Shown: positions 28,538 through 49,874, counted from the first letter of the stretch. The stretch: DNA of 53,818 nucleotides from an uncultured Verrucomicrobiota bacterium (GCA_903896505.1 CAITXU010000157.1:1-53818), one strand, 5' to 3'. Numbers and translations are program-made. The notes: generated from the letters alone by a model not told the origin.

Positions 28538-28538
28538 A

Positions 28539-31606: not shown

Positions 31607-31637
31607 GGTTCAATCAACCGCTGTTATTGGCACTGGG

Positions 31638-32792: not shown

Positions 32793-32794
32793 GA

Positions 32795-34309: not shown

Positions 34310-34313
34310 ATCG

Positions 34314-34736
34314 CTAAGGGGCGGAGTCGGTTGGCAACCCAAACGGTCGACGAAGCCAGGATATGGCAGAGGATACCTCGATGTCCCCGGTTCGCGTCAA
34401 ATGCACAGACAACCGGTAGTTTCGCGGCTCGACATAGTCACCGTGCCAGAATTCAACCCCGTTCGTGAAGAGCCTGGCCTCGGTCGCTGCTCCGGTTGCG
34501 TCCAGGGAAAAGCGGACGGACTCTCCGTCGGCGATCTCATCAAAAGTCCTCTGCTGCCCGCACGCGGCGACCCGCAGAGCTGACAGGGTTCGTCCGGTAT
34601 CGTTGTAAATCATAATGCGCGTCGTACCGGCTCGCACCCAGGCGATCGCTCCAGAAGCCACGATCATGGAAATGGCGAGCAGCGGCAACCAGACCCGTCG
34701 TCGGCGCCACCAGTCAGGAGGCAAAACGTCGCTCAT
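34314..34736 (-). CDS. Small membrane-anchored protein of the EPS operon
   Basis: A 140-residue protein with one N-terminal membrane helix (VWLPLLAISMIVASGAIAWV) after a basic WWRRRR stretch, then a beta-rich extracytoplasmic domain (TTRIMIYNDTGRTLSALRV, NYRLSVHLTRTGDIEV). I do not recognise a family. It overlaps the upstream glycosyltransferase by 23 nt and is followed after 4 nt by the STAS-fused transferase, so it belongs to the operon. It could be an assembly or anchoring factor. Confidence 0.7.
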   Translation of the reverse strand: MSDVLPPDWWRRRRVWLPLLAISMIVASGAIAWVRAGTTRIMIYNDTGRTLSALRVAACGQQRTFDEIADGESVRFSLDATGAATEARLFTNGVEFWHGDYVEPRNYRLSVHLTRTGDIEVSSAISWLRRPFGLPTDSAP

Positions 34737-35919
34737 AGGTTTCGCTCAGTTGCCGACCCAGCGTCTTCCAGGACAACCGGTCGTGCACGGTTTGCTTTCC
34801 GGTCAACTCCAGACGTTGGCGCAAGGCTCCATCGCGGAGCCCATTCCCCGTCTCTTCAATGAACGCCTGGGCGGTATCGGCCAGAAGGATTTCCTTACCA
34901 TGGCGAAGTTCAAGTCCCTGCGCCCCGATGGTGGTGGAGACGACCGGAGTGCCCATCGCCATGCTTTCGGGAATCTTCAATCGGGTTCCTCCACCGATTC
35001 GCAAGGGGACAATTTGCAACCAGGCCTGCCGGTAGTAGGGGCGAACGTCGGGGACACCGCCGGTGACGGTCACGCCCTTGCGGGAGGCGTACGCTTGAAC
35101 TTCCGGGAGAGGTGCCTTTCCGACAATGAGGATCCGCAGTTGAGGCACCCACTCCAGGAGTCCGTCATGGATTTCCTGAAAAAACCAGCGCAGGGCATCG
35201 ACATTGGGCGAATAGTCCATTGCCCCGCAGAAGAGCACTGTGGGTTCCACCGCCCTCGGCACCGGAGTGGATTCCGGTGTAAAATAGTCCAGGTCCACGC
35301 CATTGGTAATCACCAATGTCCGCACCTGCCTGGAAATCTCGAAGCGGATGAAATTCTCGTCATCGGGACCGCACACCACCTCGAGGGCGGTGCGCCGGGC
35401 GATCCGTCGCTCAAAGCGTCCGAGTTTTGCCAGATTCTCCCAATCAAGGAGCGATTGCCGAAAACCGCGCGAAAGTGCGGCGCGCTGGGCCAACTGGAAC
35501 TGGAGGTCCACACGGCTCCGGTCAATGGCGAGCGGCAGGTCCTGATGGTCTTCGAGAAAATACTGGGCCATGACGATGTCGCACACATGAACCAGCGGGT
35601 AGGTCTCGCTTCCGATAAACCGCTTCAAGGCCTCGGCGATATGGGGAAGCCGCCAGTGTCGGATGGTGGTGGGCAGCGGATTCAGGAGGCGGTCGGGAAA
35701 CAGACGGGGCCAGGGCGGATGGGCGAATCGGACAAATTCCACACGGCGGCAGAATTCCTGAAAATGAGGTTTCTGATCCTCCCGCTCACCGTTTTCGCAC
35801 AAGGCGAGCAGGTCCACTTCGTGATCCTTTGCCAGGGCACGCAGCAGGTGATAGGTCCGTTGAAACGTTCCCCGGTCGGGCGGGTACGGAACGTAGGGAT
35901 AAACAACGAGAAGCCGCAT
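34714..35919 (-). CDS. Glycosyltransferase, GT4-like (EpsH1/PEP-CTERM-associated type)
   Basis: A 401-residue GT-B transferase beginning RLLVVYPYVPYPPDRGTFQR, the N-terminal pattern of sugar transferases often found with exosortase-type exopolysaccharide loci. The donor half includes VLFCGAMDYSPNVDALRWF, LRILIVGKAP and LKIPESMAMGTPVVSTTIGAQGL. No exosortase gene is present in this window. It starts 2 nt after the nucleotidyltransferase-like gene. Confidence 0.85.
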   Translation of the reverse strand: MRLLVVYPYVPYPPDRGTFQRTYHLLRALAKDHEVDLLALCENGEREDQKPHFQEFCRRVEFVRFAHPPWPRLFPDRLLNPLPTTIRHWRLPHIAEALKRFIGSETYPLVHVCDIVMAQYFLEDHQDLPLAIDRSRVDLQFQLAQRAALSRGFRQSLLDWENLAKLGRFERRIARRTALEVVCGPDDENFIRFEISRQVRTLVITNGVDLDYFTPESTPVPRAVEPTVLFCGAMDYSPNVDALRWFFQEIHDGLLEWVPQLRILIVGKAPLPEVQAYASRKGVTVTGGVPDVRPYYRQAWLQIVPLRIGGGTRLKIPESMAMGTPVVSTTIGAQGLELRHGKEILLADTAQAFIEETGNGLRDGALRQRLELTGKQTVHDRLSWKTLGRQLSETYERRFAS

Positions 35920-35921
35920 GA

Positions 35922-37070
35922 TTAGTGGTATCGATGCCAGAGTCGTTCGTAAGCCGCAACCAATCCCGAAAGTTGAACCTCCCGGGTCCTCAATTCTCGC
36001 TGAAGCTGGCCATCCAACGGTCCTTCGGCCAGGACATGATCATCCCACAACAAGAGGCAGAGCGAGTGAAACAGCCGCTCACGGGGGTAGCGACCCGAAA
36101 ACACCCCCGACCAGCAGCGGTCCCGCAGGTTTACCAACCGGTTGCGCAAGGTCGGTTGTTCCGGGCATTTGTTCAACCGGCTACGAGCGTAGTCGGAGGA
36201 GTTGGAAAATGATGTGCCCAACCGACGATTCTCGAGCCACAGCCAGACGCATTCCGCTATGCCGGATAATTGCTGGTGGCGGGCCTTGAGTTCGTCCCGC
36301 GAGGCGGTTGTTCGATGCGGGTGTAATTTGAAGTCCACGCCCGCCCGGTGATGGTGCTGGACCTTTTCGAGGAAGGGCATCTCCGGAGTGGGGGCGATGG
36401 CCAGGAGTCGCTTGTGGCGTTCCCGGCAGCTCCAATGATATTCCCCTCGGCTTGTCAGAATCACGTCGCCCAATGCCAGTTCAAGTTTGGCCAGGTTGCG
36501 CCCGACAAAATCGGCTTCCTCGGGGCCAAACTCCGCGCGTTCCAATCGTTCCAGACTGAACAACAGCCCCGAGCAGCGGTTCATCAACAGCCGCGTCGCC
36601 TCATGGAGCGGGATGCGATGAGCGTCCCGACGGTGGGCCGCAAGCGACATATCCAGGAAGTCGGCATCACCAAAGATCAGCCGGTGTCCGGCTGCCAGAT
36701 CATAATAAAACATCGAGGGCAGCGAGGTCAGCAGCTTGGCCGCGGTCATGACTTTGAACTCCACCTCGAGACCAGCCGCAGGTGATAGCCGGGCTCCAAT
36801 CTGATGCAGGGGCCCTCGGAATTTTCGCTCGGACATCAGGGCGTTGCCCCGTAAAAAGACATAAAATTCGAGGTCATTGTAGGGCCTTTCTCCCTCCGGC
36901 GTCTGAAGCACACCCCCTTCCCCCCGTCCGTAGCCACCTCCCAACAGGATGCCATCGAGTTTCCAGGGCGGAATCAGCTCCAGAACGGCGTTCCGCACAT
37001 CCAGACAAAGTTGAGCGAGCCGCCTTTCCAGGTCAGGGCCTCCATCGACTGTAAACCGGATGGAATTCAT
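35922..37070 (-). CDS. Nucleotidyltransferase-fold protein of unknown role
   Basis: A 382-residue cytoplasmic protein. Near the N-terminus GGGYGRGEGG followed by NDLEFYVFLRG looks like the G-S/G and D-x-D/E elements of the polymerase-beta nucleotidyltransferase fold. The rest is helical and I recognise no domain. It is coupled by ATGA overlap to the upstream GT4 gene. It could transfer a nucleotide to a sugar or protein, or be a scaffold. The second metal ligand reads Asp-Leu-Glu, so activity is possible. Confidence 0.6.
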   Translation of the reverse strand: MNSIRFTVDGGPDLERRLAQLCLDVRNAVLELIPPWKLDGILLGGGYGRGEGGVLQTPEGERPYNDLEFYVFLRGNALMSERKFRGPLHQIGARLSPAAGLEVEFKVMTAAKLLTSLPSMFYYDLAAGHRLIFGDADFLDMSLAAHRRDAHRIPLHEATRLLMNRCSGLLFSLERLERAEFGPEEADFVGRNLAKLELALGDVILTSRGEYHWSCRERHKRLLAIAPTPEMPFLEKVQHHHRAGVDFKLHPHRTTASRDELKARHQQLSGIAECVWLWLENRRLGTSFSNSSDYARSRLNKCPEQPTLRNRLVNLRDRCWSGVFSGRYPRERLFHSLCLLLWDDHVLAEGPLDGQLQRELRTREVQLSGLVAAYERLWHRYH

Positions 37071-38347
37071 GATGGCACCCGGGTTCCAGATTTGTCAGCC
37101 GACGGCTTCCCTTTGGCCAGGGCAATCGTCTCCTCCAGGTAGCGCTCAAACTGGTCCACGATGACCGGTTCGTTGTAGCGAGACCGTACCTCGGCATGGC
37201 CGGTGGCCGCGATCCGGGCGCGGGCCACGGGGTCTGCCGCCAGTTCGACTATGCGTTCCGCCAGTTCGGCAGCGTCGCCGGCCTTATAGGTCAGGGCGTT
37301 TTCCCCATGCCTGAATAGTTCCGGGCTGCCTCCGGTCATGGTTCCAATAACCGGCAGGCCACTGCTCATGGCTTCGAGCGGTGTGAGGGCAAATGGCTCC
37401 TCCCATTCGGAGGTGAACAAGAGCGCGTCATGAGCCCGATAGATATTGGGCATCTCTGTCGATCGAGCCGTGTGAAAAAAGACGGGCAAATGATGTTCGC
37501 GGACATAGGCGTGAAGGCGTGCGGTGTAGTCGGCATCGCCACGACCGTAGACATGAAGTTCACCGGGAAAGCGTCCCTGCACTGCTGCCATGGCGCGAAG
37601 GGCGGTCATGACCCCCTTATCTTCTGCCAGGCGTCCCACGTAGAGCAGTCGATGAAGGATTTGCGAAGCGGGTGCGGGAGTGCCGGAAAACCGTCCGATA
37701 TCGACCGGACAATAGATGACGGCGCCGTGGCCCACGGAATAGCCTTTGGCCGCCGTCAGGTCGCGAAGAGCCCGACTGCAAAAGGAGATGCGATCAAACC
37801 GGATGGAACGGACCGGATCGGTTGGGGCGATGACACTCCATTTCCGCCGTTGACCGGTCCAATTCCACGCCGTCCGCAGCAGCCGCGCCATGGGGGATGG
37901 ATTGCTTCGGTTCCACCAGTCGAGCCAGACATCGGCGGCGAGGCTTCGGGCGATCCAATGGTCTGACAAATGATAGGCCGTTGGCACCGGCAAACCCTGC
38001 AAGGTCAGACAGATGGATTTGGAGATGCCTCCGAGATTCCAGACGTGGACCACATCCGGTTGAACCCGGGCAACGGCCTCCCGAACGCAGCGATTGTTAT
38101 GGAGTTCAAGGTCCGCCAGCGCCCGAATGCCGAGCCAGGGATGGCCAAAGAACCCGTGGACCCGCAACTGACGGCTGATCCCCGGTTCGGGGCCCTCCTC
38201 ACGAACTCCGTCGACCCGATGATTGGAGGTCAGGACCTCCACCTCGTGTCCGTGAGCCCGCCACGCTGCGACCATGGCGGCACAGATCAATTCGTATCCG
38301 CCGACATAATGCGGTGGATAAAGATTGGTCAGGACCAGGATTTTCAT
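37067..38347 (-). CDS. Glycosyltransferase, GT4 family
   Basis: A 426-residue GT-B enzyme with a classical N-terminus (KILVLTNLYPPHYVGGYEL), the mid-region WNLGGISK, and a donor site with LLYVGRLAEDKGVM, TSEWEEPFALTPLEAMSSG and a Gly-rich GTMTGGSPEL. It would add one of the internal sugars of the repeat unit. It overlaps both neighbours by 4 nt. A 29-codon upstream extension of the frame was rejected, because the ATG at 38347 overlaps the preceding stop. Confidence 0.9.
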   Translation of the reverse strand: MKILVLTNLYPPHYVGGYELICAAMVAAWRAHGHEVEVLTSNHRVDGVREEGPEPGISRQLRVHGFFGHPWLGIRALADLELHNNRCVREAVARVQPDVVHVWNLGGISKSICLTLQGLPVPTAYHLSDHWIARSLAADVWLDWWNRSNPSPMARLLRTAWNWTGQRRKWSVIAPTDPVRSIRFDRISFCSRALRDLTAAKGYSVGHGAVIYCPVDIGRFSGTPAPASQILHRLLYVGRLAEDKGVMTALRAMAAVQGRFPGELHVYGRGDADYTARLHAYVREHHLPVFFHTARSTEMPNIYRAHDALLFTSEWEEPFALTPLEAMSSGLPVIGTMTGGSPELFRHGENALTYKAGDAAELAERIVELAADPVARARIAATGHAEVRSRYNEPVIVDQFERYLEETIALAKGKPSADKSGTRVPS

Positions 38348-39213
38348 GCGGGAGTGGATTCCTTCCAGCCTTGGCGGTAACCGGCCAGCTTTCCGGCGCG
38401 CTGGGCCCATCGCACGCGGGCGGAGTGAGGCCATTCACGAAGGCGTCGGCTGTTCGAACAAAAGCGCAGGTCATGCCGGACATCGCTCAGCCAGCCGAGC
38501 AGGACCGTTTGCCACCAGGAAATCCCATCGGGCTGTCGAGTCCAGGCCCGGGCGATGGCCCGGGCATCGCCAAAGCTCCGGCGGCGGGCCTGCTCCACGG
38601 TGTAATTGTGCGAATGCATGACCACAGCCTCCGGCACATAGGTGATGTCATAGCCCTGCGACCGGCACCAGCGGGTGTATTCATCATCCTCGGCATATTG
38701 AAGTTCCTCGCGGAATCCACGCCGGGCCCAGGCATCCCGTCGGAGGCCGCTGCTGACCATGCTGAAAAAGTGGTCCCAACGGGCTGATTCCCGGTTAGGC
38801 CCGAAGCAGCGTTCATAGTCGCAGGCAAAAACGGCCTGACAGTCCGGACGCGGTATTTGTCGTCCAAAGACCGCGGCGACCTTGGGGTCGGCGAGCGGCG
38901 CAGACAGCCTGGGGAGCCAGTCCGTCCCTTGTGGCGTCGCATCGGCATTGAGAAAGAGGCAGATGTCGGCACGGGCCAGCCGCATACCGTGATTCATCAC
39001 CCGGCTTGGGTTGTATTCCTTGGGCGTGATCTGGATGAAATGGGCCGGCTGGGCAGCCTGAATGAGCTGTTGCGATCCATCGGTGGAGCCGGAGTCGATC
39101 ACGATCAGCTCCCAATTCCGATATTGCTGGGCCTGAAGTGCCGGCAGGGTTCCCTGGAGGGCCCATGCTTCGTTGTAGGAACGCATGATGATGCTGACCA
39201 ACGGTTCACTCAT
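38344..39213 (-). CDS. Glycosyltransferase, GT2 family
   Basis: A 289-residue GT-A inverting transferase. SIIMRSYNEAWAL and VIDSGSTDGSQQ form the nucleotide-binding part. LFLNADATPQG is the D-x-D-like metal site (here Asn-Ala-Asp), and YAEDDEYTRWCRSQG gives the acidic catalytic base region. The basic C-terminus (RWAQRAGKLAGYRQGW) may bind the membrane. ATGA overlaps on both sides. Confidence 0.9.
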   Translation of the reverse strand: MSEPLVSIIMRSYNEAWALQGTLPALQAQQYRNWELIVIDSGSTDGSQQLIQAAQPAHFIQITPKEYNPSRVMNHGMRLARADICLFLNADATPQGTDWLPRLSAPLADPKVAAVFGRQIPRPDCQAVFACDYERCFGPNRESARWDHFFSMVSSGLRRDAWARRGFREELQYAEDDEYTRWCRSQGYDITYVPEAVVMHSHNYTVEQARRRSFGDARAIARAWTRQPDGISWWQTVLLGWLSDVRHDLRFCSNSRRLREWPHSARVRWAQRAGKLAGYRQGWKESTPA

Positions 39214-40772
39214 GAGGCGGACCTCCTCAGGAACGGAATGCGTCGACCGAATTTCCGGGTCAATTCCTCCTGTTCGGGGGGCTGCAGGGCCATGCGCCAC
39301 AACCCCACCCCACCCACCAGACCGGCGAGCGTCCCTTCGATGAACATGGCGGCCATGGTCGAACCGCCGGGTGACAGAACCACCAATTTCAAGGCGGCCA
39401 AAACAGCGAGCATGGGCAGGCATCCGAGCCACGACGGAATCACGGATTGGCGGAACAACGGCCACCCCTTCAACCCCGTGTCCTTTGCCATCCATGGCCA
39501 CAGGTGGACCCATCCAAAATAGAGGGTTGGGATCAGTGAGCCGATCGCCACCGCCACGACACTCCGGGTCGCCAACACCAAACCGACGCTGAGGATCAGG
39601 TTGGCCGCTGCCTCGCCGAGACCGAGCCACATCAGTCGCCGTTCGTGGCCGGTCATCATGAAAATTCGTTTGGAAACACTATGAGTCAAAATGGTGGTGT
39701 AAAACCAAGTCAGTAGCACATGACCCACCAGGATGGTATCCGCCGATAGCGCCTTGTCGCCGGTCAACAACCGAAGCAACTCGGAAAGGTAAAAGGCGCA
39801 TAACAGGTAAAGGGGCGTGGCAATCAGGACCGTCCATCGAAGACTATTGACCAGCAAATCCTGAAGCGCGGCCTTGTCGCCCGTGGCGTGGAGGTGGGCG
39901 GCCGCCGGTGAGAGGGTGTCCTGCACCTGCTTGGTGAACTGGCTGAACACCTCCGCCACCTTGGCTCCGGCCTGGTAGAGGGCCACTGCTGATACCGAAA
40001 GGACAGCTCCCAGCACCAACTGGTCGGTCTTACCCAGGACTATGTTGGTGGCGGTGCCCAGGTAGGCGAACACCGAAAACTGCATGGTCTCACCCATCAT
40101 CGCCGGGGAAAACAACGACGGTCGAATTCGCACGCCCGGCATCCGTTGGAGCGCAAATAAGGCAGCCAGAAAGTCGGGGGCCAGCGCGAAGAAAAGCGCG
40201 ATAAACATCACCGCCATGAAACTCCACTTGAACCAGACGGCAGCGGCGATAAAGCCGAGCCGCAGGATCAGAGCGCCGGAGATCAGGTTATTGGTGAGCC
40301 GAATGCGCTGCTGGCCACGGAGGACCTCCGGGAAGATACCCATCGGAAAGGCCAGACCAATCCCGAGAAAAAAGACCACCATGACCTTGCGGAACTCCTC
40401 ATGGTTGGCTGCGGAAACACCAAACCACCGGACAATGGTGGCTGAACCCGCCAGCACCACCAAGGCGATGGCCACGGAAATGCCGGCATAGAAGACCAGA
40501 ATGGTGCTGAGGACGCGGCTCAGCTTTTCCCACTCTTTCAGCACCGAAAGTTCGGCCACCCGTTTTTGGGCGGCGAAACCGAATCCAAAGTCGAGAAGAA
40601 TGCCGTACCCAAACACGCTCCAAAGGAGCGACCAGAATCCGAACTGCTCCTGATTCAGGGACTGATACAACATTCGGAAGGTGAGCAGACCCACGGCCAT
40701 GCCCAACACCGTCCGGACATAGTTCGAAATCGAGTTGCTCCAGATGTTGCGTTTGACTTCGTCGTAGCTCAT
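39210..40772 (-). CDS. Wzx-like polysaccharide flippase (MOP superfamily)
   Basis: A 520-residue integral membrane protein with about 12-14 hydrophobic segments. Features include YVRTVLGMAVGLLTFRMLY at the start, FGFWSLLWSVFGYGILLDFGFG (typical Wzx text), and FAYLGTATNIVLGKTDQLVLG in the middle. It should flip the lipid-linked repeat unit to the periplasmic side. No separate Wzy polymerase was found in the operon. ATGA overlaps join it to the upstream GT4 and downstream GT2 genes. Confidence 0.87.
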   Translation of the reverse strand: MSYDEVKRNIWSNSISNYVRTVLGMAVGLLTFRMLYQSLNQEQFGFWSLLWSVFGYGILLDFGFGFAAQKRVAELSVLKEWEKLSRVLSTILVFYAGISVAIALVVLAGSATIVRWFGVSAANHEEFRKVMVVFFLGIGLAFPMGIFPEVLRGQQRIRLTNNLISGALILRLGFIAAAVWFKWSFMAVMFIALFFALAPDFLAALFALQRMPGVRIRPSLFSPAMMGETMQFSVFAYLGTATNIVLGKTDQLVLGAVLSVSAVALYQAGAKVAEVFSQFTKQVQDTLSPAAAHLHATGDKAALQDLLVNSLRWTVLIATPLYLLCAFYLSELLRLLTGDKALSADTILVGHVLLTWFYTTILTHSVSKRIFMMTGHERRLMWLGLGEAAANLILSVGLVLATRSVVAVAIGSLIPTLYFGWVHLWPWMAKDTGLKGWPLFRQSVIPSWLGCLPMLAVLAALKLVVLSPGGSTMAAMFIEGTLAGLVGGVGLWRMALQPPEQEELTRKFGRRIPFLRRSAS

Positions 40773-42055
40773 GCGGTGGCCCTCCCGTAGCGGGTCGCCG
40801 CATGCCGCTCCGCCGCCAGATAGAGCTGCTCCAATTGAACCGCCACCCGGCTCCAATCGTAGCGTTCCGTTGCCTCGGCCCTGCCGGCTTCACCCAATTT
40901 GCGACGCAAGCCCGGATCGTCGGCCAGCATGAGCAGTCGATTCGCGAGGTCGATGGAAGTACCCTCCCCGCCCGGTCGGATAAAGAGACCATTTTCCCCG
41001 TCCCGGACGAGTGCCCGAAGACCACCCACGTGATTGGCGATGACCGCCCGTCCGGCGCTCCACGCTTCCAGAACCACAATGCCAAATGGCTCGTGCCGGG
41101 AAGGCAGGACAAAAACGTCGCAGGCGTGGTAGGCCTCGACCAACTGAGGATCGTCGTTGCGCAATCCAGGCAGCAGTCGAACCGAGGCGGAAAGGTTCCG
41201 CTCGGCCACCAAGGCTCGGATTCGAGCCGCGTAGTCGGGCTGAGTCTCGGGACCTATCAGGACCAGAGATGAATTGGGCTTCCTTTGAATCAATTCGGCA
41301 AAGGCCTCCAATAAGAGCAATTGATTTTTCTGGGGATCAATCCGGCTCAGGTTGAGCACCACGAATGCATCGTCCGAGAGTCCGTGACGTCGACGGAAGG
41401 CGGCACCGTCCCCGGTGGCGAACCGGGCGGAATCGACTCCATTCGGAAGGTAGGCGATGCGGTCATGTTTCAATTGACCGCGGGCTCGTTCGAGCTCGCC
41501 CGCGCCCACGCAGATGACCTGGTCGGCATCGTCCAGGATGCGGCGTGACCCGAAGAGGGCACCGAAGACCTTGCCCCATTCCGGTTTGTTGGCGATGGGG
41601 CGGAGCATTTGCTCCCGTTCAGCCTCGGGAACATCAAACACGCCGCCGTGCAAGGTCACGACAAAGGGCTTCCGTCGCAGGCGGGCAGCAGTCCGGACCT
41701 CGCCTCCCAGGCGCTTTAGGGCGTGCGCATGAAACAACCGCACATTGGGACGCGACAACAGCCCATAGAACAGGGAGAGGGAGAGGAGGTTACCCCCCTT
41801 TTTGTCCATGGCCGCCCTGTCCTGGCGGCTCAAGCCCAAAAACGGGTAACAGTAGGGATAGCGTCGGACGGGGACCCCTCCGATCTCCTCGCGCCGCTGG
41901 CTGGCCAAAGCCATGGAGGTCAATATCTCAGGGGTGGCACCCGCCCGTTGTTGTTGGCGCGAGATTTCGAGAATCACGGTCTCCGTGCCACCCCACTCCG
42001 CGGCGACGAACCGGCGGGGGACATGAACAATCCGTTGTTTCTCTGACAAGCTCAC
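40769..42055 (-). CDS. Glycosyltransferase, GT4 family
   Basis: A 428-residue GT-B enzyme. The acceptor half has RFVAAEWGGTETVI and THLHGG-like VVTLHGGVFDV. The donor half has VLNLSRIDPQKNQLLLLEAF, LVLIGPETQPDY, and SRHEPFGIVVLEAWSAG as the E-x7-E motif. It starts with GTG at 42055, overlapping the methyltransferase stop as GTGA. Confidence 0.9.
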   Translation of the reverse strand: MSLSEKQRIVHVPRRFVAAEWGGTETVILEISRQQQRAGATPEILTSMALASQRREEIGGVPVRRYPYCYPFLGLSRQDRAAMDKKGGNLLSLSLFYGLLSRPNVRLFHAHALKRLGGEVRTAARLRRKPFVVTLHGGVFDVPEAEREQMLRPIANKPEWGKVFGALFGSRRILDDADQVICVGAGELERARGQLKHDRIAYLPNGVDSARFATGDGAAFRRRHGLSDDAFVVLNLSRIDPQKNQLLLLEAFAELIQRKPNSSLVLIGPETQPDYAARIRALVAERNLSASVRLLPGLRNDDPQLVEAYHACDVFVLPSRHEPFGIVVLEAWSAGRAVIANHVGGLRALVRDGENGLFIRPGGEGTSIDLANRLLMLADDPGLRRKLGEAGRAEATERYDWSRVAVQLEQLYLAAERHAATRYGRATA

Positions 42056-42810
42056 GGGCGCAAAAAGAGGAAGGTGCCCCCTTCCTCCCGTTCCACATGG
42101 AATCCGAGGTTAAGAAGGTCTCCAACAATCCGATAGGTGGCCTGATGCCCGATGAAGCCGGGGTGAAGCTCAACAATAATTTTGCGCACCGAGGCGGGAA
42201 GCTGGCGGAAATCGACGAATTGTTCCGCTCCTTCGATATCCATGATGAAGGCCGTCGGCGAATAATCCATTCGGGAAACCAGGGTGGTGAGAGAGACACC
42301 CGGAACCCGGACGGTTCGACCTCCCGAGCCGGCGACCAGAGAGTTCTCCCAGAATTCATTGCCAACATTGAGTGTCACCTCCCCGTCCTGGGCGGCCAGG
42401 GCCAGGTTCCAAACCGTTGGCGTCCGTCCGTTGATCTCGTAGTTGCGTTTCAGCCGTTCGACCGTTCCCGGATTGGCCTCCACGGTCGTGTACCGGGTGA
42501 TGCCCAGGCGGGTCTGGCAGAACAGTCCGATAAATCCGATGGCACCTCCGACCTCCAGGACCGTGTCGTCCGCGCGCAAAAACTGCTGCGCCAGCAGGCG
42601 CTCCTGCACTTCATAACGCCCGAGCAACAGATTATTCTTCATCACCGAAGACAGCCCCTTCACTTCCAATTGGACGCCCTCCAAGGTGACCCGTTCCAAC
42701 TTGGGCAGGGTGAATTTGAAGCGCCAGCGCGTGCGGAAATCCTCCCAGAGCTGGTACGGGAGCGTTCGCTCGAACAGGCTGGGACGGGTCGACGAAGGAT
42801 TGGAACTCAT
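42052..42810 (-). CDS. FkbM-type methyltransferase
   Basis: A 252-residue SAM-dependent O-methyltransferase. VLEVGGAIGFIGLF is the SAM loop, TTVEANPGTVERLKRNYE the acidic motif, and FIMDIEGAEQFV plus VELHPGFIG the FkbM signature. It probably methylates a sugar hydroxyl of the polymer. It overlaps both neighbours by 4 nt. Confidence 0.88.
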   Translation of the reverse strand: MSSNPSSTRPSLFERTLPYQLWEDFRTRWRFKFTLPKLERVTLEGVQLEVKGLSSVMKNNLLLGRYEVQERLLAQQFLRADDTVLEVGGAIGFIGLFCQTRLGITRYTTVEANPGTVERLKRNYEINGRTPTVWNLALAAQDGEVTLNVGNEFWENSLVAGSGGRTVRVPGVSLTTLVSRMDYSPTAFIMDIEGAEQFVDFRQLPASVRKIIVELHPGFIGHQATYRIVGDLLNLGFHVEREEGGTFLFLRP

Positions 42811-44024
42811 GAAGGGATGGGTGTGGCTGTCGACCGGTTGCGATCCCGGGCGAGCAGGGCGGTCTCTTTCATCAAATCACAGAGGTGGGGGATGGCAGTG
42901 AGGCTGTCGGGAAATCCGCCCTGATTGGTCAGCACCGTGGCATACGAATGCTTATCCGTCGGATGATAGCCGTGCATCGCACGGATGGGACGTTCCCCCA
43001 TGTGGCTCGGCACGATCAGGACGCCCTCCTTCACCAGAAAGATTAATTCCCCGAAATAGCGATCCTCGAAGCGGGTGTGCATCGCCTCCAATTCTTCATC
43101 CGGCAAAATCCGACCCTCAGGAACCCCACGAAGTGTCGACTCAATCAGTTGCCGGGCGCGATCGTTGAAAAACCAGAACCGGGCCATGGTTGAATCATAA
43201 ACGGCCGCGTAGTCCTGCTGGAATTTCAACGGGAGGGCATTGATCCGCGACATCAGGTCCAGATGAACGTCGCAGTTGGCCATCCCGTGATCGCTAAAAA
43301 CATACAACCGGATGTCTTCATACCGACTTTCGGCCGCATCGATGAGTTGCTGAAGCCACTGTTCATAAACCCGAAGACGGGCGGGAATTTCCGGCGAATC
43401 ATTTCCCACCCGATGCAACAGCCCATCCAACCCGGCCCAATAGAGAAAGGCAAAATCGATGGAGCCTTCACGAAGTTGCGCGGCGAGGACGTCACGATTG
43501 GTCTCCTCGGTCTGTGCCGGGTCGCTGACGAAATAAGGAATCTGGTGAGCCACCAGGAAATCGAAAATGTTCTCGCCCCGGTTCATTCCCCCGGGCTGGA
43601 GCGGGCTTTTCTTTTCGGTGAAGTCGTACCGGTGGATGTGTTGAAATGGAATATTGTAAAGATCAAAATATCCCTTGAATTGAAGGCGCGCCTTGAAAAT
43701 CCGGGTGAGGATCCGGCGGACGATGCGGCGTCCCGTCACCGCCCGAGGCAACCAACGGAGCCAGCGAAGGGAACGGAACGGGGAGTTTTCCGGATCGTGG
43801 ACAAAATAACACCAGTTACGGTGCTGAATTGGCCATCGCCCTGAAAGAATGGACGGTACACAGGTCGAACTGTAGCCGAAGACGCTGTCCAATCGCCTGC
43901 GGAGGGGGACAAAGCTCTTTCCAAAGGGATCACTGCGAAGAATTTCCCATCCCATGGCATCGATCATGACAAAGAGCCCCAGCATGGGCTTCCGAGGCGC
44001 AGCGACGGGTGGGGCGGGATTCAT
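42807..44024 (-). CDS. Alkaline-phosphatase-fold enzyme (type I phosphodiesterase/nucleotide pyrophosphatase)
   Basis: A 405-residue metal-dependent hydrolase. VMIDAMGWE gives the first Asp (22), YSSTCVPSILSG the nucleophile Thr (54), AGLDGLLHRVG Asp and His, YVFSDHGM Asp-His, and MHGYHPTDKHSYA the last His. These are the ligands of two zinc ions in this superfamily. No signal peptide is evident, so it seems cytoplasmic. Inside an EPS operon it may remove or transfer a phospho group on the glycan or a lipid intermediate. It sits between the regulatory genes and the methyltransferase, coupled by ATGA. Confidence 0.8.
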   Translation of the reverse strand: MNPAPPVAAPRKPMLGLFVMIDAMGWEILRSDPFGKSFVPLRRRLDSVFGYSSTCVPSILSGRWPIQHRNWCYFVHDPENSPFRSLRWLRWLPRAVTGRRIVRRILTRIFKARLQFKGYFDLYNIPFQHIHRYDFTEKKSPLQPGGMNRGENIFDFLVAHQIPYFVSDPAQTEETNRDVLAAQLREGSIDFAFLYWAGLDGLLHRVGNDSPEIPARLRVYEQWLQQLIDAAESRYEDIRLYVFSDHGMANCDVHLDLMSRINALPLKFQQDYAAVYDSTMARFWFFNDRARQLIESTLRGVPEGRILPDEELEAMHTRFEDRYFGELIFLVKEGVLIVPSHMGERPIRAMHGYHPTDKHSYATVLTNQGGFPDSLTAIPHLCDLMKETALLARDRNRSTATPIPS

Positions 44025-44413
44025 GGCGTGGCAGCAGGGGTTGGCAGGGCGGAGATCAGCCGTCGCGCTTCGGCCGCCAGCGAGCTGGGACTAAACGGCT
44101 TGGTCAGGTAGAGCGCCGCTCCCGAGCCTTGGGCTTCATTGCGGGTGATCGTTTGCCCTCGAGTCGTCAGCATGATGATCGGGATGGCCGCGGTCGCCGG
44201 CGTGGCTTTCAGTTGTCGGAGGGCGGTGATGCCGTCCATTTCGGGCATGGTGACGTCCATGACGATCAAGGCCGGTAATTCACGGCTGGCCAGGTCAATG
44301 GCCTCCCGACCACTCCGGGCGGTGAGGATTTGATACCCGTCCTTTTTGAGGCTCAGTTCGGTGAGTCGCAACATGTGCGGCTCGTCATCCACGATGAGGA
44401 CTTTGCGGCTCAT
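44021..44413 (-). CDS. Single-domain response regulator
   Basis: A 130-residue receiver domain. LIVDDEPH supplies the acidic pair, VMDVTMPEMDG the phosphoacceptor Asp (53), TT near 83-84 the switch residue, and LTKPF the conserved Lys (105). There is no output domain, so it must act by protein contact, perhaps on the kinase/phosphatase encoded 1 nt upstream. ATG 44413 is used; the upstream frame overlaps that gene. Its stop overlaps the phosphodiesterase start as ATGA. Confidence 0.92.
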   Translation of the reverse strand: MSRKVLIVDDEPHMLRLTELSLKKDGYQILTARSGREAIDLASRELPALIVMDVTMPEMDGITALRQLKATPATAAIPIIMLTTRGQTITRNEAQGSGAALYLTKPFSPSSLAAEARRLISALPTPAATP

Positions 44414-44414
44414 G

Positions 44415-46235
44415 TCAAAAAGGGAGGTTTCCAGCCAGAACCAGAAGTGCCGTGTCGTCGGCCGGCTCTCCTGCGTTTTCAAATTCACCGAGCATTTCCA
44501 CAATCTTACGGCGGGTGATATCGATCGGTTCCCCGCTCAGGGCGGCATTTCGGAGCAGAACCTTGATCGGTTCGAGGCCCAAAAGCTCACCATCCCGGTT
44601 GCGCGCTTCGATCAGTCCGTCGGTGAACAACAGGGCGCGGCCCCCGCTATACGAGCGGGTTTCCTCGGAGGGTTCGGAATCCTCCACGATGCCCAAGGGC
44701 GGCCCCCCTGCCCGGACTTCAATGACTTCGCCCTGATCAGTGGCGAGGAGCATGGGCGGATGGCCGGCTCCGGAAACCCGGATTTCAGCCCGGCCCACGT
44801 CGATATAGGCCAACTGGGCGGTAATGAACATTTCCGCTGCATCCAACTCGCTGAAGAGGTTTTGGTTTAACCAGGCCAGGAAACGGCCCGGATGGGGCGC
44901 CAGGTCGCGGCGGGAACGGACCAAGCTTCTGAACATGAGAGCGAACAACGCGGCGGGTAGTCCCTTGCCCATCACGTCACTCATGATCAGCAAAAGATTG
45001 CCGTCTTCAGTCACGAGGGCATCGTAGTAATCTCCACCAATCTGTCGGGCGCTTCGGCAAAACCCGGCGAGAGAGGCTCCCGGCAATAGTGGAAGTTTTT
45101 GCGGGAGCAACATCCGCTGGATGTTGGCGGCAATCTCAAAGTCGCGGGCATCCACTCGAGCCCGCAGTTGTTCCTCCAGAATCCTTTGACTGAGAATTCG
45201 AATACCAAGGAAATCGGCAATGGTCTGGATGACACTGACCTGGCCGTCTTCGAAGGCGGCGGTGAAGTCCTTTCGACCGATGGTAAACACGCCCACCAGC
45301 GTGTCGTTGACGAAGAGCGGGTGGGAGAAACCACCGCCGCGACCAAACCCCGCCAGCGGATCATCGGATGCCAACGGTGCCTGAGCATCAAACCAAACGT
45401 CACTCCGTTGAACGATGGCCCGGCACTCTGCGCCACTCGACGTGAGGGGAATGGATTCCGACGGGCGCAAACCGGTGGTAACGTCGAGCTCAGAGGTCAC
45501 GGAAAGCACCAATTGGGTTGCCTCGCGGTCGACCAACCGAAGAACAAACCAATCGGCACCCGTCATCGTCAGCAATTGGCGCAACCAGCGCTGAATGAAT
45601 TCATTGGAGCCGGCCTCCCCCTGCAACTCCGCGCTGAATCGAAAAATCGCGGCGAGACTTTCATAAGCCGATGCCAGTTCTTCGGTCATCGCCTCCAGCA
45701 TCTGACGGGCTTCGATGGATTCAGTGGACTCCGACTCCCCGGAGGGAGAGATCAGAGCGGAATTGGGGGTCGGAGCCGGAGCCGGGGTCGGATCAGCTGG
45801 GGATGGCGATGGTGGGTTGCGCCGCTTTCTGAGAATCAACTGGTTTTCGTCGGGTCCGCGCAAATATTTGGCCTCGTCGGTCAGTGCCTGGATGATGAAC
45901 AGGCCGCGACCCGATTCCGAATCATCCGGGGGCAATTCTGCATTTTCCGGAAAATCAAATCCTCCGGTCCGGTCAACCACATGAGCTTCGACCAGTTCCA
46001 CGGTCACCAGCAAACGGAGGCCCACCCCGCGTTCCTTACGTTCGGGCAGGGCGTGGGTCACCGCATTATTGGCGGCTTCCACCAGAACCAATTCCCACCC
46101 TCCGACCTCGTCCTCACCCAGTCCGGCTTGCTCCAGGAAGGTGCGGGCTTGAAGGCTTGCGGCACGCACTGACTCATAGTCGCATTCCACATCCATGACG
46201 TGGGTTCGAACAGGAATGACGCGCACAGGTTCCAT
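44415..46235 (-). CDS. RsbW-like kinase + GAF + PP2C phosphatase in one protein
   Basis: A 606-residue cytoplasmic regulator. Residues 15-140 are a GHKL ATPase of the RsbW/SpoIIAB type: N-box ELVLVEAANNAVTH (Asn 56/57), VVDRTGG and SGRGLFIIQ. A Pro/Ser linker follows (141-170). A GAF-like sensory domain occupies about 195-350. A PP2C/SpoIIE phosphatase occupies 370-606, with GGDYYD (Asp 402), SDVMGKG (Asp 420), FTDGLIE (Asp 539) and ADDTALL (Asp 593/594). It can in principle both phosphorylate and dephosphorylate STAS proteins. Candidate targets are the STAS protein 3 nt upstream and the STAS-fused transferase at 32795. Confidence 0.92.
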   Translation of the reverse strand: MEPVRVIPVRTHVMDVECDYESVRAASLQARTFLEQAGLGEDEVGGWELVLVEAANNAVTHALPERKERGVGLRLLVTVELVEAHVVDRTGGFDFPENAELPPDDSESGRGLFIIQALTDEAKYLRGPDENQLILRKRRNPPSPSPADPTPAPAPTPNSALISPSGESESTESIEARQMLEAMTEELASAYESLAAIFRFSAELQGEAGSNEFIQRWLRQLLTMTGADWFVLRLVDREATQLVLSVTSELDVTTGLRPSESIPLTSSGAECRAIVQRSDVWFDAQAPLASDDPLAGFGRGGGFSHPLFVNDTLVGVFTIGRKDFTAAFEDGQVSVIQTIADFLGIRILSQRILEEQLRARVDARDFEIAANIQRMLLPQKLPLLPGASLAGFCRSARQIGGDYYDALVTEDGNLLLIMSDVMGKGLPAALFALMFRSLVRSRRDLAPHPGRFLAWLNQNLFSELDAAEMFITAQLAYIDVGRAEIRVSGAGHPPMLLATDQGEVIEVRAGGPPLGIVEDSEPSEETRSYSGGRALLFTDGLIEARNRDGELLGLEPIKVLLRNAALSGEPIDITRRKIVEMLGEFENAGEPADDTALLVLAGNLPF

Positions 46236-46238
46236 GAA

Positions 46239-46541
46239 CTAGATTTTAACCACTTCAAAAAGCCGGTTGAGACGGGTGACCTCGAACACCTGCTCCACCG
46301 CATGAATGGGGTTCAACACCCGGACATGGCCGCCCCGCGCGAGCATCAGCTTGTGAATCGCAATCAGGGCACCGAGGCCGCTGCTGTCGACAAACCGCGT
46401 TTTCGACAAATCGATGTCCACACCGGTCACCTCCGAGGTCACCGCGCCGCGGACTCCATCGCGAACCGACGCAGCATTGGTGGCGTTGAGCTCCTGTAAG
46501 CCCGTCACCACGAGGACTCCTGGGGAATGGTGCAGTTTCAT
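46239..46541 (-). CDS. STAS-domain protein (anti-sigma-factor antagonist type)
   Basis: A 100-residue SpoIIAA/RsbV-like protein with the phosphorylation motif FVDSSGLGAL (Ser 53/54) and the hydrophobic strand pattern VDIDLSKTRF. It would be the substrate of the kinase and phosphatase domains of the next gene. It starts by ATGA overlap with the left-handed-helix protein and is followed after 3 nt by the kinase/phosphatase gene. Confidence 0.92.
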   Translation of the reverse strand: MKLHHSPGVLVVTGLQELNATNAASVRDGVRGAVTSEVTGVDIDLSKTRFVDSSGLGALIAIHKLMLARGGHVRVLNPIHAVEQVFEVTRLNRLFEVVKI

Positions 46542-47293
46542 GGGATGGGCAGGCGATGTCGCCACTGTTTCCAAAGGCGGGTCAGGGAAAATTTTGGCGC
46601 TGCGGCCTCGCTCAGGAGAAAACGATCCTGCACCTCGGTGAGCGAGCCGGTATCGAGTTGAAGCAAGTCCCGACCCCAGGCGAACGAGCGCCGAAGTTCG
46701 GTAAACGACCCCGCGTAGGTTCCAGGTCCAACAATGCTTTCGACCACTTCAGAGCCATCGTCGAGGTAGCTGTCGTCCTCCACCACAGCCTGTGGGCCGA
46801 CCACCGACCCCGGTCCAATAAAGACGTTATCACCAATCCACAACGGCCCCGTCAGCCGCGCGTCCGGCGCCAGGCGGGTCCTCAGGCCCACAAATACCCC
46901 GGGCCGTAATTCCCGCATTCCCACCCGTTGTCGCGCCATCCGTTCCAGCAGTGCCATCTGGGCATCGAACCAGACGGGATAGCTGGCCCACAGAGCGAGA
47001 TCGGGGGCCTGAGGCAGGCTATCGAGGATAAATCGTCGGGCACCGGCAAAATCCCGCTCATCAGGTCCTGTGATCTTCAGTCCCCAAACTTCGCCCGCAC
47101 CCACCGCCCGCAAGACCTCAGCGGTTCGCTCACCCGCCTGGAGGCAAATCTGTTTGGCCCCTTCGCCGGAAAGTCCCGAAAGGGTGTGTGCGAGGGCGGT
47201 CTGTCCCAGGAAGGGACTCAGAACGAGCGGGCGTTTCCGCGAGAGGGCGGGAACGCCGACAACCGCGACAGGACATTGGAGGATGACTTTCAC
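46538..47293 (-). CDS. Left-handed beta-helix protein related to NDP-sugar pyrophosphorylases
   Basis: A 251-residue protein starting at GTG 47293 (VKVILQCPVAV), 4 nt after the sugar transferase stop. The N-terminal half resembles a nucleotidyltransferase fold but lacks the G-x-G-T-R-x-x-P motif needed for catalysis. The second half has hexapeptide-like turns (LAPDARLTGPLWIGDNVFIGPGS, VVEDDSYLDDGSEV), i.e. a left-handed beta-helix. It could be a degraded pyrophosphorylase that still binds sugars, or a scaffold. Confidence 0.65.
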   Translation of the reverse strand: MKVILQCPVAVVGVPALSRKRPLVLSPFLGQTALAHTLSGLSGEGAKQICLQAGERTAEVLRAVGAGEVWGLKITGPDERDFAGARRFILDSLPQAPDLALWASYPVWFDAQMALLERMARQRVGMRELRPGVFVGLRTRLAPDARLTGPLWIGDNVFIGPGSVVGPQAVVEDDSYLDDGSEVVESIVGPGTYAGSFTELRRSFAWGRDLLQLDTGSLTEVQDRFLLSEAAAPKFSLTRLWKQWRHRLPIP

Positions 47294-47297
47294 GCGA

Positions 47298-48050
47298 TCA
47301 CATGCCCTTGCCAAAAAGAATGGCGGGAACCGTTTTGGTCAACAGCCACAAGTCCTTCCAGATGCTCTGGCTTTCGATGTAAAGGACGTCGAGGCTGACC
47401 TGTTCCGGAAAATCGATGGCATTCCGGTCTCCAATCTCAAAAATGCCCCCCTTGCGCTCGCCCACCTGCCAGATGCAGGTGATTCCGGGTTTGACCAGCA
47501 GCCGCCGCCGGTCGGCCGGTGAATAGAGAGCCACCTCCCGGGGGATGGGGGGACGCGGACCCACCAGCGACATATCGCCGATCAGCACGTTCCAGAACTG
47601 GGGCAATTCATCGAGGGAACTCTTGCGGATAAAACGTCCCACGCGGGTCACCCGGGGGTCGTTCTTCATTTTAAAGGTCACGCCCGACGATTTTTCGTTC
47701 TGTGCCAACAATTGCTGCAATCGGGCTTCGGCATCGACCACCATGGAGCGAAACTTCAGCATCTTGAATTCACGTCCGTTGAGCCCGACGCGCGTCTGGC
47801 GGAAAAGCATGGGGCCTCCATCGAGTTTCACCAGAATGCCCAAAGCCACAAGAACTGGCGATAGGAGCACCAACGCCACAATGCTCACCACGATGTCCAG
47901 CACCCGTTTGATGAAAAAGGTGGTGCCCACCACGGCGCTCCAGCTCAAGCGCTTCCAGCGGACGGTCGCATTCAGGCGGGCACGCCCCAGAGGTGTCTGG
48001 GCCTGCAACAGCCGGTTGGCGGCTTTCTCCGTGATATCTTCGCGACTCAT
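47298..48050 (-). CDS. Polyprenyl-phosphate sugar-1-phosphate transferase (EPS initiating)
   Basis: A 250-residue bacterial sugar transferase that loads the first sugar-1-phosphate on undecaprenyl phosphate. It has one membrane helix near residue 50 (FIKRVLDIVVSIVALVLLSPVL), then FRQTRVGLNGREFKMLKFRSM, SLDELPQFWNVLIGDMSLVGPRP and PGITCIWQV. It lacks the extra N-terminal helices of WbaP/WcaJ and so is the minimal type. ATGA overlap with the kinase-like gene. Confidence 0.93.
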   Translation of the reverse strand: MSREDITEKAANRLLQAQTPLGRARLNATVRWKRLSWSAVVGTTFFIKRVLDIVVSIVALVLLSPVLVALGILVKLDGGPMLFRQTRVGLNGREFKMLKFRSMVVDAEARLQQLLAQNEKSSGVTFKMKNDPRVTRVGRFIRKSSLDELPQFWNVLIGDMSLVGPRPPIPREVALYSPADRRRLLVKPGITCIWQVGERKGGIFEIGDRNAIDFPEQVSLDVLYIESQSIWKDLWLLTKTVPAILFGKGM

Positions 48051-48673
48051 GAACGAACTTTTGGACCGGATAAAAGTTGTCGGCACCGGTTCACCAGGTC
48101 CGGCATCCTGCTTGTCACTTCGTCGGTGTGCACAATCAGATCGGCCCGCACCGCCTGACCGCTGATGTATCGCCGATGCATGGGGGACACCTGGTGAGCG
48201 AATTGATGACGGATCGATTCCGGGGACCTGTTGCGTTCATGTTGATCCCGTTCGAGGCGACGGGCAAGCCGTGTTTCCTCCTCGCATTCCACAAACACGC
48301 TGAACCCCCACATTTCCCGCAATTCCCGTCGGCGCAGGAGCCAAAGCCCGTCCAACACCACCAGCGGACGGGGAACCCATCGACGAACACTCCCCGAACG
48401 AGTGTGGCTTCCGAAATCATAGACCGGAATCTCAACCGATAAACCTGCCTTCAACTGGGAGAGCACCCGGCGAAAGAGAGCCCAGTCGATGGCCCCGGGG
48501 CGGTCAAAATTGGTTTTCTCCCTCTCCTCGACCTCCAAATGCGACAAATCCCGATAGAAATCGTCGAGTGCCATGCGCCCGGCCATTCCGTTGAGCCCCT
48601 CCACCAGGCGGTCTGCAAGCCAGGTCTTGCCTGAACCGCTTCCGCCAACCACGGCAATCAATTGGGCCTTCAT
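48047..48673 (-). CDS. Uridine-kinase-like P-loop protein
   Basis: A 208-residue kinase of the uridine/phosphoribulokinase-like group. GGSGSGKTW is the Walker A motif, MALDDFYRDLSHL a substrate-binding acidic stretch, and VLDGLWLLRRRELREM the second acidic motif. It could make a sugar phosphate or nucleotide for the operon, or salvage UMP. It starts 1 nt after the first gene. Confidence 0.8.
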   Translation of the reverse strand: MKAQLIAVVGGSGSGKTWLADRLVEGLNGMAGRMALDDFYRDLSHLEVEEREKTNFDRPGAIDWALFRRVLSQLKAGLSVEIPVYDFGSHTRSGSVRRWVPRPLVVLDGLWLLRRRELREMWGFSVFVECEEETRLARRLERDQHERNRSPESIRHQFAHQVSPMHRRYISGQAVRADLIVHTDEVTSRMPDLVNRCRQLLSGPKVRS

Positions 48674-48674
48674 C

Positions 48675-49874
48675 TCAAGCAACCTTGGAACTCCGTTCGT
48701 CCACCACCCGGGCAAACATGGACTCCAAATCACCGATATAACCATCGAAGTCATAGCGTTCGGAAACAAACTTCAGCCCGTTCTCCCCCAAGCGCCGGGC
48801 GAGGGGTTTGTCCTGGAGCAGTTGGTCTATCCGAGCCGCATATTGGTCCACGTCGCTCCACGGCACCAGAAAGCCGGTCTGACCATCTGTCAGCCAGTCC
48901 CGAATACCTCCGGCATCGAAGGCTACCACCGGCAGGGCATATCGCATCACTTCGAGCCCGATGGTAGCGATTGGCTCAGGCCAGACCGAACTGATGGCAA
49001 CCACGGAGCATTCCCGGTAGTACCCCTTGAGTTCCTCCTGGGGAATGAATCCCTTAAACGTCACCCGGTCACTGAGCCCAAGGTCCTTGCTGAGCGCCTC
49101 GCAGGTGGCTTTGTGGTTTCCGTCACCCAAAATGACGCACTCAAACGGGGTCTTCAACCGCGCCAATGCCCGAAGCAGGAGGTCCACTCCCTTGCCGCGG
49201 ATGATTTGCCCCGCATACAGGATCAGGTTCCGGTCACTAAAACTGCTACGGAGATTGGGGTCTCCCATCCGTGGAACCGGAGCGTGAATCTCTATACGGC
49301 TGGCATCAAAGCCGTTGTTCAACAACTCGTCCCGCATGTAGTTGGTCACCACCACCATTCGGTTGAACCGTTGATTGAGAGCCACCTCCCGACGTTTTTC
49401 TGTGTAACTGACCCATTTCAGTGGAAATCCGCCGTCCCGGTTCTTAACGACGGACGCAAGACACGGGAAGATGCAGTGAAGCCCCACCGGACGGGTACAA
49501 ATGCGACGGCTGAAATAGTCGTACTTGTAGCTCCGCATGCAGTAGATGTCGTGATCATGCACCATTCGGACCAATGGGACACCCCGATTCACGAGCGCCT
49601 CAATCACCGCCAAATCGGCCATTTTGTGGACATAAACCACGTCGGGCCGGAATTCAGTCAATGCCCGCGCAGCGGCTGCTGCCGTATCGGTGGCCCCGAC
49701 CGGGAATCGATGGGGAAAGGTCGCCTCCCAACCGGATTCGTTTTTTCCAGTGGAGGGTCCGTGCAACAGGCCCAGGACATGCCCGCGTCGACCAAGCTCC
49801 GACGCAGTGATGAAGGCGTTGGCCTCCGCGCCCGCCAATGCCCCAAAGCGCTCATGAACATACAAGATGCGCAT
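48675..49874 (-). CDS. Glycosyltransferase, GT4 family (first gene of the EPS operon)
   Basis: A 399-residue GT-B enzyme with ILYVHERFGALAGAEANAFI at the N-terminus and a donor half with LILYAGQIIRGKGVDLLLRA, FECVILGDG, and SVWPEPIATIGLEVMRYALP as the E-x7-E motif. It is the first of 21 leftward genes ending at 27437. Its start follows a 129-bp gap that holds a small dyad (49897-49915). Confidence 0.9.
   Translation of the reverse strand: MRILYVHERFGALAGAEANAFITASELGRRGHVLGLLHGPSTGKNESGWEATFPHRFPVGATDTAAAAARALTEFRPDVVYVHKMADLAVIEALVNRGVPLVRMVHDHDIYCMRSYKYDYFSRRICTRPVGLHCIFPCLASVVKNRDGGFPLKWVSYTEKRREVALNQRFNRMVVVTNYMRDELLNNGFDASRIEIHAPVPRMGDPNLRSSFSDRNLILYAGQIIRGKGVDLLLRALARLKTPFECVILGDGNHKATCEALSKDLGLSDRVTFKGFIPQEELKGYYRECSVVAISSVWPEPIATIGLEVMRYALPVVAFDAGGIRDWLTDGQTGFLVPWSDVDQYAARIDQLLQDKPLARRLGENGLKFVSERYDFDGYIGDLESMFARVVDERSSKVA

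What the first reader, a model, noticed from the sequence alone, without database searches (positions are those of the whole stretch)
44021..46541. Partner-switching module embedded inside the EPS operon
A STAS protein, a single protein carrying both RsbW-type kinase and PP2C phosphatase around a GAF sensor, and a lone response regulator lie within the operon, coupled to the biosynthetic genes by 1-4 nt gaps or ATGA overlaps. No sigma factor lies next to the module, so its target may be the STAS-fused enzyme rather than transcription. The logic recalls SypE/SypA in Vibrio fischeri, but domain order and targets differ.
Basis: partly seen in the sequence, partly recalled or inferred. Interest (0 to 1): 0.8.

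Follow-up and report, generated by a model that had tools for sequence, protein, structure and literature searches.

The report
Phosphorylation switch wired into slime-sugar operon
A bacterial on/off phosphorylation switch (a kinase-phosphatase protein, a small STAS protein and a receiver protein) sits inside the operon that builds a surface polysaccharide, and in many relatives it travels with a sugar-transferring enzyme that carries two copies of the kinase's usual target domain, so it may switch polysaccharide synthesis at the enzyme rather than through gene expression.

Summary
On the minus strand, STAS (46239-46541), a kinase-GAF-PP2C protein (44415-46235, here 'KGP') and a lone receiver (44021-44413) lie between a nucleotidyltransferase-like gene and a phosphodiesterase gene in a gap-free, roughly 21-gene EPS cluster (27437-49874). 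All catalytic and phospho-acceptor residues are present. The operon also encodes a WecG/TagA glycosyltransferase with two C-terminal STAS domains (32795-34342). The cassette is conserved across Verrucomicrobiota. In 13 of 13 order-level relatives with WecG-STAS-STAS a KGP gene is also found. Other families use a REC-PP2C-kinase fusion beside the same STAS and sugar-transferase genes. In three genomes WecG-STAS-STAS follows KGP-RR directly. In one of those the locus has no other STAS gene. In two of those three its glycosyltransferase is catalytically dead while both STAS serines remain. My best explanation is a partner switch that phosphorylates the free STAS and the STAS tandem on WecG, setting EPS synthesis post-translationally. 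The genomic linkage is shown; phosphorylation, binding and effect on EPS are inferred. The module also occurs without WecG-STAS, so that enzyme is not its only output. It is a new variant of the SypE/SypA- and HsbR/HsbA-type switch. No description of a STAS-fused glycosyltransferase was found in the papers searched.

The parts
46239..46541 (-). Stand-alone STAS protein (100 aa), RsbV/SpoIIAA-like, predicted phospho-acceptor Ser53 in DSSGLG
   Evidence: Pfam STAS 4e-14; NCBIfam ant_ant_sig over cut-off; aligns to SpoIIAA and TM1442; DS motif serine kept in all 20 homologues aligned
44415..46235 (-). KGP: RsbW-type serine kinase (res. 19-137) - GAF (212-347) - long helix (330-376) - PP2C/SpoIIE phosphatase (411-600)
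   Evidence: kinase residues E53, N57, D88, G109/G111 and PP2C residues D402, D420, D539 invariant in 18 homologues, D593/D594 nearly so; aligned to RsbW; model pLDDT 84, Foldseek hits to SiaA, RsbU/RsbW of Rv1364c and RsbW
44021..44413 (-). Lone receiver-domain response regulator (130 aa), acidic pair, VMD-V acceptor Asp, T and K switch residues present
   Evidence: Pfam Response_reg 2.5e-27; next to KGP in 46 of 65 KGP loci; alignment
32795..34342 (-). WecG/TagA/CpsF (GT26) glycosyltransferase with two C-terminal STAS domains (res. 308-401 and about 414-515), acceptor serines S350 and S471; candidate target
   Evidence: catalytic T74, N76, D102, R120 and C-tail R254/R261/R265 present; S471 kept in 46 of 47 and S350 in 47 of 55 homologues
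46538..47314 (-). Hexapeptide-repeat / nucleotidyltransferase-like protein, conserved immediately upstream of STAS
47298..48086 (-). Initiating polyprenyl-phosphate sugar transferase (EpsZ/WbaP type), conserved neighbour of the module
   Evidence: Pfam Bac_transf 8e-67
42807..44024 (-). Type I phosphodiesterase/phosphatase-like protein, conserved next gene after RR
27437..49874 (-). Whole EPS cluster: glycosyltransferases, Wzx-like flippase, Wzz-like chain-length protein, SLBB export proteins, the module and WecG-STAS-STAS; no clear intergenic gaps

Best explanation
This is a partner-switching module that controls exopolysaccharide synthesis mainly after translation. A phosphorelay, probably from an unlinked hybrid histidine kinase, sets the lone receiver. 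The receiver (with the GAF domain) tips KGP between its RsbW-type kinase and its PP2C phosphatase. KGP phosphorylates and dephosphorylates the acceptor serines of the small STAS protein and of the two STAS domains on the WecG-type glycosyltransferase. The kinase domain binds unphosphorylated STAS, so free STAS and enzyme-borne STAS compete for it. Release or capture changes the activity or membrane placement of the glycosyltransferase, whose catalytic C-terminal tail directly precedes the STAS pair, and so changes polymer output. Shown: gene content, intact active sites, conserved order and co-occurrence. Inferred: every interaction, the direction of control and the effect on polymer.
For: (1) Intact kinase, phosphatase, STAS and REC signature residues. 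(2) In 58 order-level genomes, all 13 with WecG-STAS-STAS are among the 20 with KGP (hypergeometric 2e-8 if genomes were independent). (3) In 27 of 28 WecG-STAS genomes inspected from a 388-genome phylum sample a fused kinase-phosphatase was found, usually beside sugar transferase, STAS and hexapeptide genes; kinase-domain base rate 225 of 388. (4) In other families the regulator is one REC-PP2C-kinase protein in the same context, which argues that the lone RR acts on KGP. (5) KGP-RR-WecG-STAS-STAS directly adjacent in L105, L107, L109; L105 has no other STAS within 10 kb. (6) In L105, L109 and related copies the GT is dead (catalytic Asp changed or missing, C-tail lost) but both STAS serines stay; STAS identity rises from about 42% (intact pairs) to about 75% (dead pairs) while the GT core stays at 72-73%. 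(7) Hybrid histidine kinases lie directly upstream of KGP-RR in other families.
Against: KGP-STAS-RR also occurs without WecG-STAS (G003, G010, G046, G055) and away from EPS genes, so other outputs exist. Dead-GT copies show that the STAS tandem can matter without controlling catalysis by its own GT. STAS1 in the REC-PP2C-kinase families has a changed motif (N/S-S-L-E). Two relatives carry a degenerate receiver (L046, L048). The WecG-STAS model was low confidence. No biochemical data.
Confidence: 0.5

Rival explanations
1. The module is a classical transcriptional partner switch: the KGP kinase domain (or the STAS protein) binds an unlinked sigma factor, anti-sigma factor or transcription regulator, and the EPS operon is its regulon. 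The STAS domains on WecG are not part of the switch.
For: Founding partner switches control sigma factors; in P. aeruginosa HsbR-HsbA acts on RpoS availability (PMC6482189 abstract). The genome has four sigma-70-family hits of 109-139 bits and ECF-like hits.
Against: No sigma gene next to the module here, and none was seen in the related loci, though those were annotated only with module and EPS models. No SigB/F/G-type sigma reaches the family cut-off. Does not explain the linkage to WecG-STAS-STAS or the conserved serines.
Confidence: 0.2
2. The free STAS protein is the output and acts on another EPS protein (sugar transferase, hexapeptide protein or chain-length regulator). The STAS pair on WecG is a second substrate or a sink that buffers the kinase.
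For: STAS sits between hexapeptide and KGP genes even where no WecG-STAS exists (L039, L042). Dead-GT STAS-STAS proteins fit a sink or scaffold role. In V. fischeri SypA is the downstream output with an unknown target (PMC10120452).
Against: Does not by itself explain why STAS is fused to an intact WecG in most carriers.
Confidence: 0.22
3. The STAS pair on WecG only mediates oligomerisation or membrane placement and never meets KGP; genes co-occur because whole EPS clusters are inherited together.
For: STAS domains can be structural; TagA activity depends on its oligomeric state and C-tail (PMC6493773).
Against: Direct KGP-RR-WecG-STAS adjacency outside the EPS cluster, with dead GT but conserved STAS serines, is not expected from passive co-inheritance.
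Confidence: 0.08

Closest known systems
SypE/SypA of Vibrio fischeri (syp polysaccharide locus)
   Same: STAS protein and a single kinase...phosphatase protein encoded in a polysaccharide locus, under two-component input, no adjacent sigma factor
   Different: SypE has REC in the middle; here GAF in the middle and REC as a separate gene. I know of no STAS-fused glycosyltransferase in syp (own knowledge). SypA's target is unknown (PMC10120452).
HsbR/HsbA of Pseudomonas aeruginosa
   Same: REC-PP2C-kinase architecture matches the alternative regulator in other Verrucomicrobiota EPS clusters (HsbR's domain order is own knowledge)
   Different: Hsb acts on RpoS availability (PMC6482189 abstract); the window protein has another domain order and context
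SiaABCD of Pseudomonas aeruginosa
   Same: Kinase/PP2C pair sets phosphorylation of a SpoIIAA-like protein that is proposed to act on an enzyme (diguanylate cyclase SiaD) rather than a sigma factor (PMC7647112); its PP2C is the best Foldseek hit
   Different: Separate proteins, threonine acceptor, enzyme makes c-di-GMP; no STAS fused to the enzyme
Rv1364c of Mycobacterium tuberculosis
   Same: Fused RsbU and RsbW domains in one protein (3ke6)
   Different: Phosphatase before kinase, PAS sensor and C-terminal STAS in the same chain (own knowledge); no EPS operon
HmpU/V/W of Nostoc punctiforme
   Same: Partner switch tied to polysaccharide and motility, target unknown (PMC8256260)
   Different: Three separate proteins; no STAS-fused glycosyltransferase reported there
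TagA/WecG (GT26) glycosyltransferases
   Same: Catalytic Thr/Asn/Asp/Arg and C-tail arginines conserved
   Different: The window protein adds two STAS domains directly after the catalytic C-tail

Membership tests
Partner-switching module (RsbU/V/W type) | RsbW-type kinase with E..N N-box and ATP-binding G boxes | tested here: met
Partner-switching module (RsbU/V/W type) | PP2C (SpoIIE/RsbU) phosphatase with metal-binding Asp residues | tested here: met
Partner-switching module (RsbU/V/W type) | STAS antagonist with acceptor Ser | tested here: met
Partner-switching module (RsbU/V/W type) | Phosphorylation-dependent exchange of binding partners | not testable with these tools
   needs biochemistry
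SigB/SpoIIA-type sigma control | Cognate SigB/F/G-type sigma gene in the operon | tested here: not met
   none adjacent; none over the SigBFG cut-off in the genome
SypE/SypA | Single kinase-REC-phosphatase protein | tested here: not met
   central GAF, REC encoded separately
SypE/SypA | STAS and kinase/phosphatase genes within a polysaccharide locus | tested here: met
HsbR/HsbA | REC-PP2C-kinase order in the regulator | tested here: not met
   window protein is kinase-GAF-PP2C; met in L263, L264, L265
WecG/TagA/CpsF (GT26) | Catalytic Thr/Asn/Asp and C-tail arginines | tested here: met

The most novel reading that the evidence does not exclude
A partner-switching kinase/phosphatase acts directly on STAS domains built into a glycosyltransferase, so the sigma factor of the classical switch is replaced by a biosynthetic enzyme. 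In some lineages the enzyme part has died and the STAS pair remains as a dedicated regulatory partner.
Probability: 0.42. Interest if true: 0.75.

Novelty: new variant of a known kind. Interest (0 to 1): 0.6.

Why it matters
Several STAS switches that control polysaccharide or biofilm (SypA, HmpV) have no known target. A phylum-wide system in which the likely target carries the STAS domains itself makes that question directly testable: three named serines and one named kinase. It would also add a case of EPS synthesis set at the glycosyltransferase by serine phosphorylation, and offers a natural series (intact, REC-fused and dead-enzyme versions) for working out the mechanism.

Tried and rejected
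Chance or frame artefact: rejected, the cassette is conserved at 30-50% identity with the same order. A histidine kinase between RR and phosphodiesterase in L047/L048: the extra gene in L048 is a CBS-DHH-DHHA2 (family II pyrophosphatase-like) protein, not a kinase; L047 was judged only by its similar sequence. KGP strictly tied to WecG-STAS: rejected, KGP occurs alone. WecG-STAS always in the same contig region as KGP: rejected, in several families it lies elsewhere in the genome. Structure of WecG-STAS-STAS: model too poor to interpret beyond secondary structure, because only four sequences were permitted. Literature searches for WecG plus STAS and for Verrucomicrobia plus EPS plus STAS found nothing; most subscription papers are not in that library.

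Full report
WHAT IS THERE. The window (G000:C157) belongs to a Verrucomicrobiota genome; the closest named matches are Pedosphaera/subdivision 3 MAGs. On the minus strand a 22-kb cluster of about 21 genes (27437-49874) runs without clear intergenic gaps. It encodes a GT4, a uridine-kinase-like protein, an EpsZ/WbaP-type sugar transferase, a hexapeptide protein, STAS, KGP, RR, a phosphodiesterase, an FkbM methyltransferase, further GTs, a Wzx-like flippase, WecG-STAS-STAS, a GT4, a Wzz-like protein and two SLBB export proteins. Some outermost start codons listed overlap the previous gene, so several true starts lie inside those ORFs.

INTEGRITY. KGP keeps the RsbW N-box Glu53/Asn57, Asp88 and Gly109/Gly111, and the PP2C Asp402, Asp420 and Asp539; these are invariant in 18 homologues, with Asp593/594 nearly so. 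Its model (pLDDT 84) matches SiaA-PP2C, the RsbU/RsbW pair of Rv1364c, and RsbW from the RsbV/RsbW complex (target TM 0.87). STAS Ser53 aligns with the SpoIIAA/TM1442 site. WecG keeps the equivalents of TagA Thr37, Asn39, Asp65 and Arg83 and the conserved C-tail arginines that TagA needs (PMC6493773). S350 and S471 start helices in the (poor) model, as expected for STAS acceptor sites.

CONSERVATION. In 58 order-level relatives KGP-like proteins occur in 20 genomes and STAS-bearing WecG in 13; all 13 are among the 20. The raw hypergeometric value is 2e-8, but genomes are related and a few hits are fragments (G001, G041, G052), so this is a description, not a clean test. Of 65 KGP loci, 52 have a separate STAS gene within 6 kb, 46 a lone RR beside them and 40 at least one EPS homologue nearby; many contigs are short, and overlaps between collections were not removed.

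TWO ARCHITECTURES. In other families (L263-L265, L298-L310, L312) the regulator is one REC-PP2C-kinase protein next to sugar transferase, STAS and hexapeptide genes, in genomes that also have WecG-STAS-STAS. One version adds Hpt (L305). The separate RR beside KGP and the fused REC elsewhere point to the RR acting on KGP. In families f26 and f35 hybrid histidine kinases lie just upstream of KGP-RR (L294, L296), a plausible input; the window has none nearby among the ORFs scanned.

LINK TO WecG-STAS-STAS. In 27 of 28 phylum-sample genomes inspected with STAS-bearing WecG, a fused kinase-phosphatase was found (exception G179, which has only a 153-aa kinase frame). A kinase domain alone is common (225 of 388), so context is the stronger argument. 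In L105, L107 and L109 the order is KGP-RR-WecG-STAS-STAS with nothing between, and in L105 no other STAS lies within 10 kb. In L105, L109, L326 and L328 the GT is degenerate: the catalytic Asp is G, E or missing, the Arg120 equivalent is changed or missing, and the C-tail is lost or shortened; both STAS serines remain. Among intact proteins the GT core is 73% and the STAS domains 40-43% identical; among the dead copies the core is 72% and the STAS domains 74-77%. The constraint has therefore shifted toward the STAS pair, as expected if that part carries the function. Samples are small (5 and 4 sequences).

LIMITS. KGP also occurs without WecG-STAS, in EPS clusters (G005, G046) and as a free-standing cassette (G003, G010, G055). 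WecG-STAS is therefore a likely client, not the sole output. A sigma target elsewhere in the genome is not excluded.

COMPARISON. It works like SypE/SypA, HsbR/HsbA and SiaABCD but is not a member of SypE/SypA or HsbR/HsbA by architecture. SypA's target is unknown (PMC10120452), and SiaC is proposed to act on an enzyme (PMC7647112), so an enzyme target has a precedent of sorts. STAS domains fused to a GT26 glycosyltransferase were not found described in the papers searched.

VERDICT. The module is real, conserved and most likely an EPS partner switch. Direct control of WecG through its STAS domains is the best-supported but unproven mechanism (about 0.5).

Noticed in passing
L105:12244-13743, L109:3150-4553, L326, L328, L330: WecG domains with lost catalytic residues fused to two STAS domains that keep both acceptor serines: apparent pseudo-glycosyltransferases.
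   Followed up: partly
window 22065-23696 (+): ECF-like sigma factor (Sigma70 r2 and r4) with a long C-terminal extension, far from the module and on the other strand.
   Followed up: no
L048:7067-8701 (similar gene at L047:6054-7685): A CBS-DHH-DHHA2 (family II pyrophosphatase-like) gene inserted between RR and phosphodiesterase genes in some relatives.
   Followed up: partly
L037, L039, L042, L100, L106: Two STAS genes in tandem before KGP; in L037, L039 and L042 the second has a DSEG motif instead of DSSG.
   Followed up: no
L046:6296-6664, L048:8698-9054: Receiver proteins of the module with degenerate signature residues (pseudo-receivers).
   Followed up: no
window 16575-20510 (-): 1311-aa protein with DUF7133, many HEAT repeats, cytochrome c-like and 3-keto-disaccharide hydrolase domains.
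   Followed up: no
window 35922-37070 (-): 382-aa protein without a Pfam match that is conserved in these EPS clusters.
   Followed up: no
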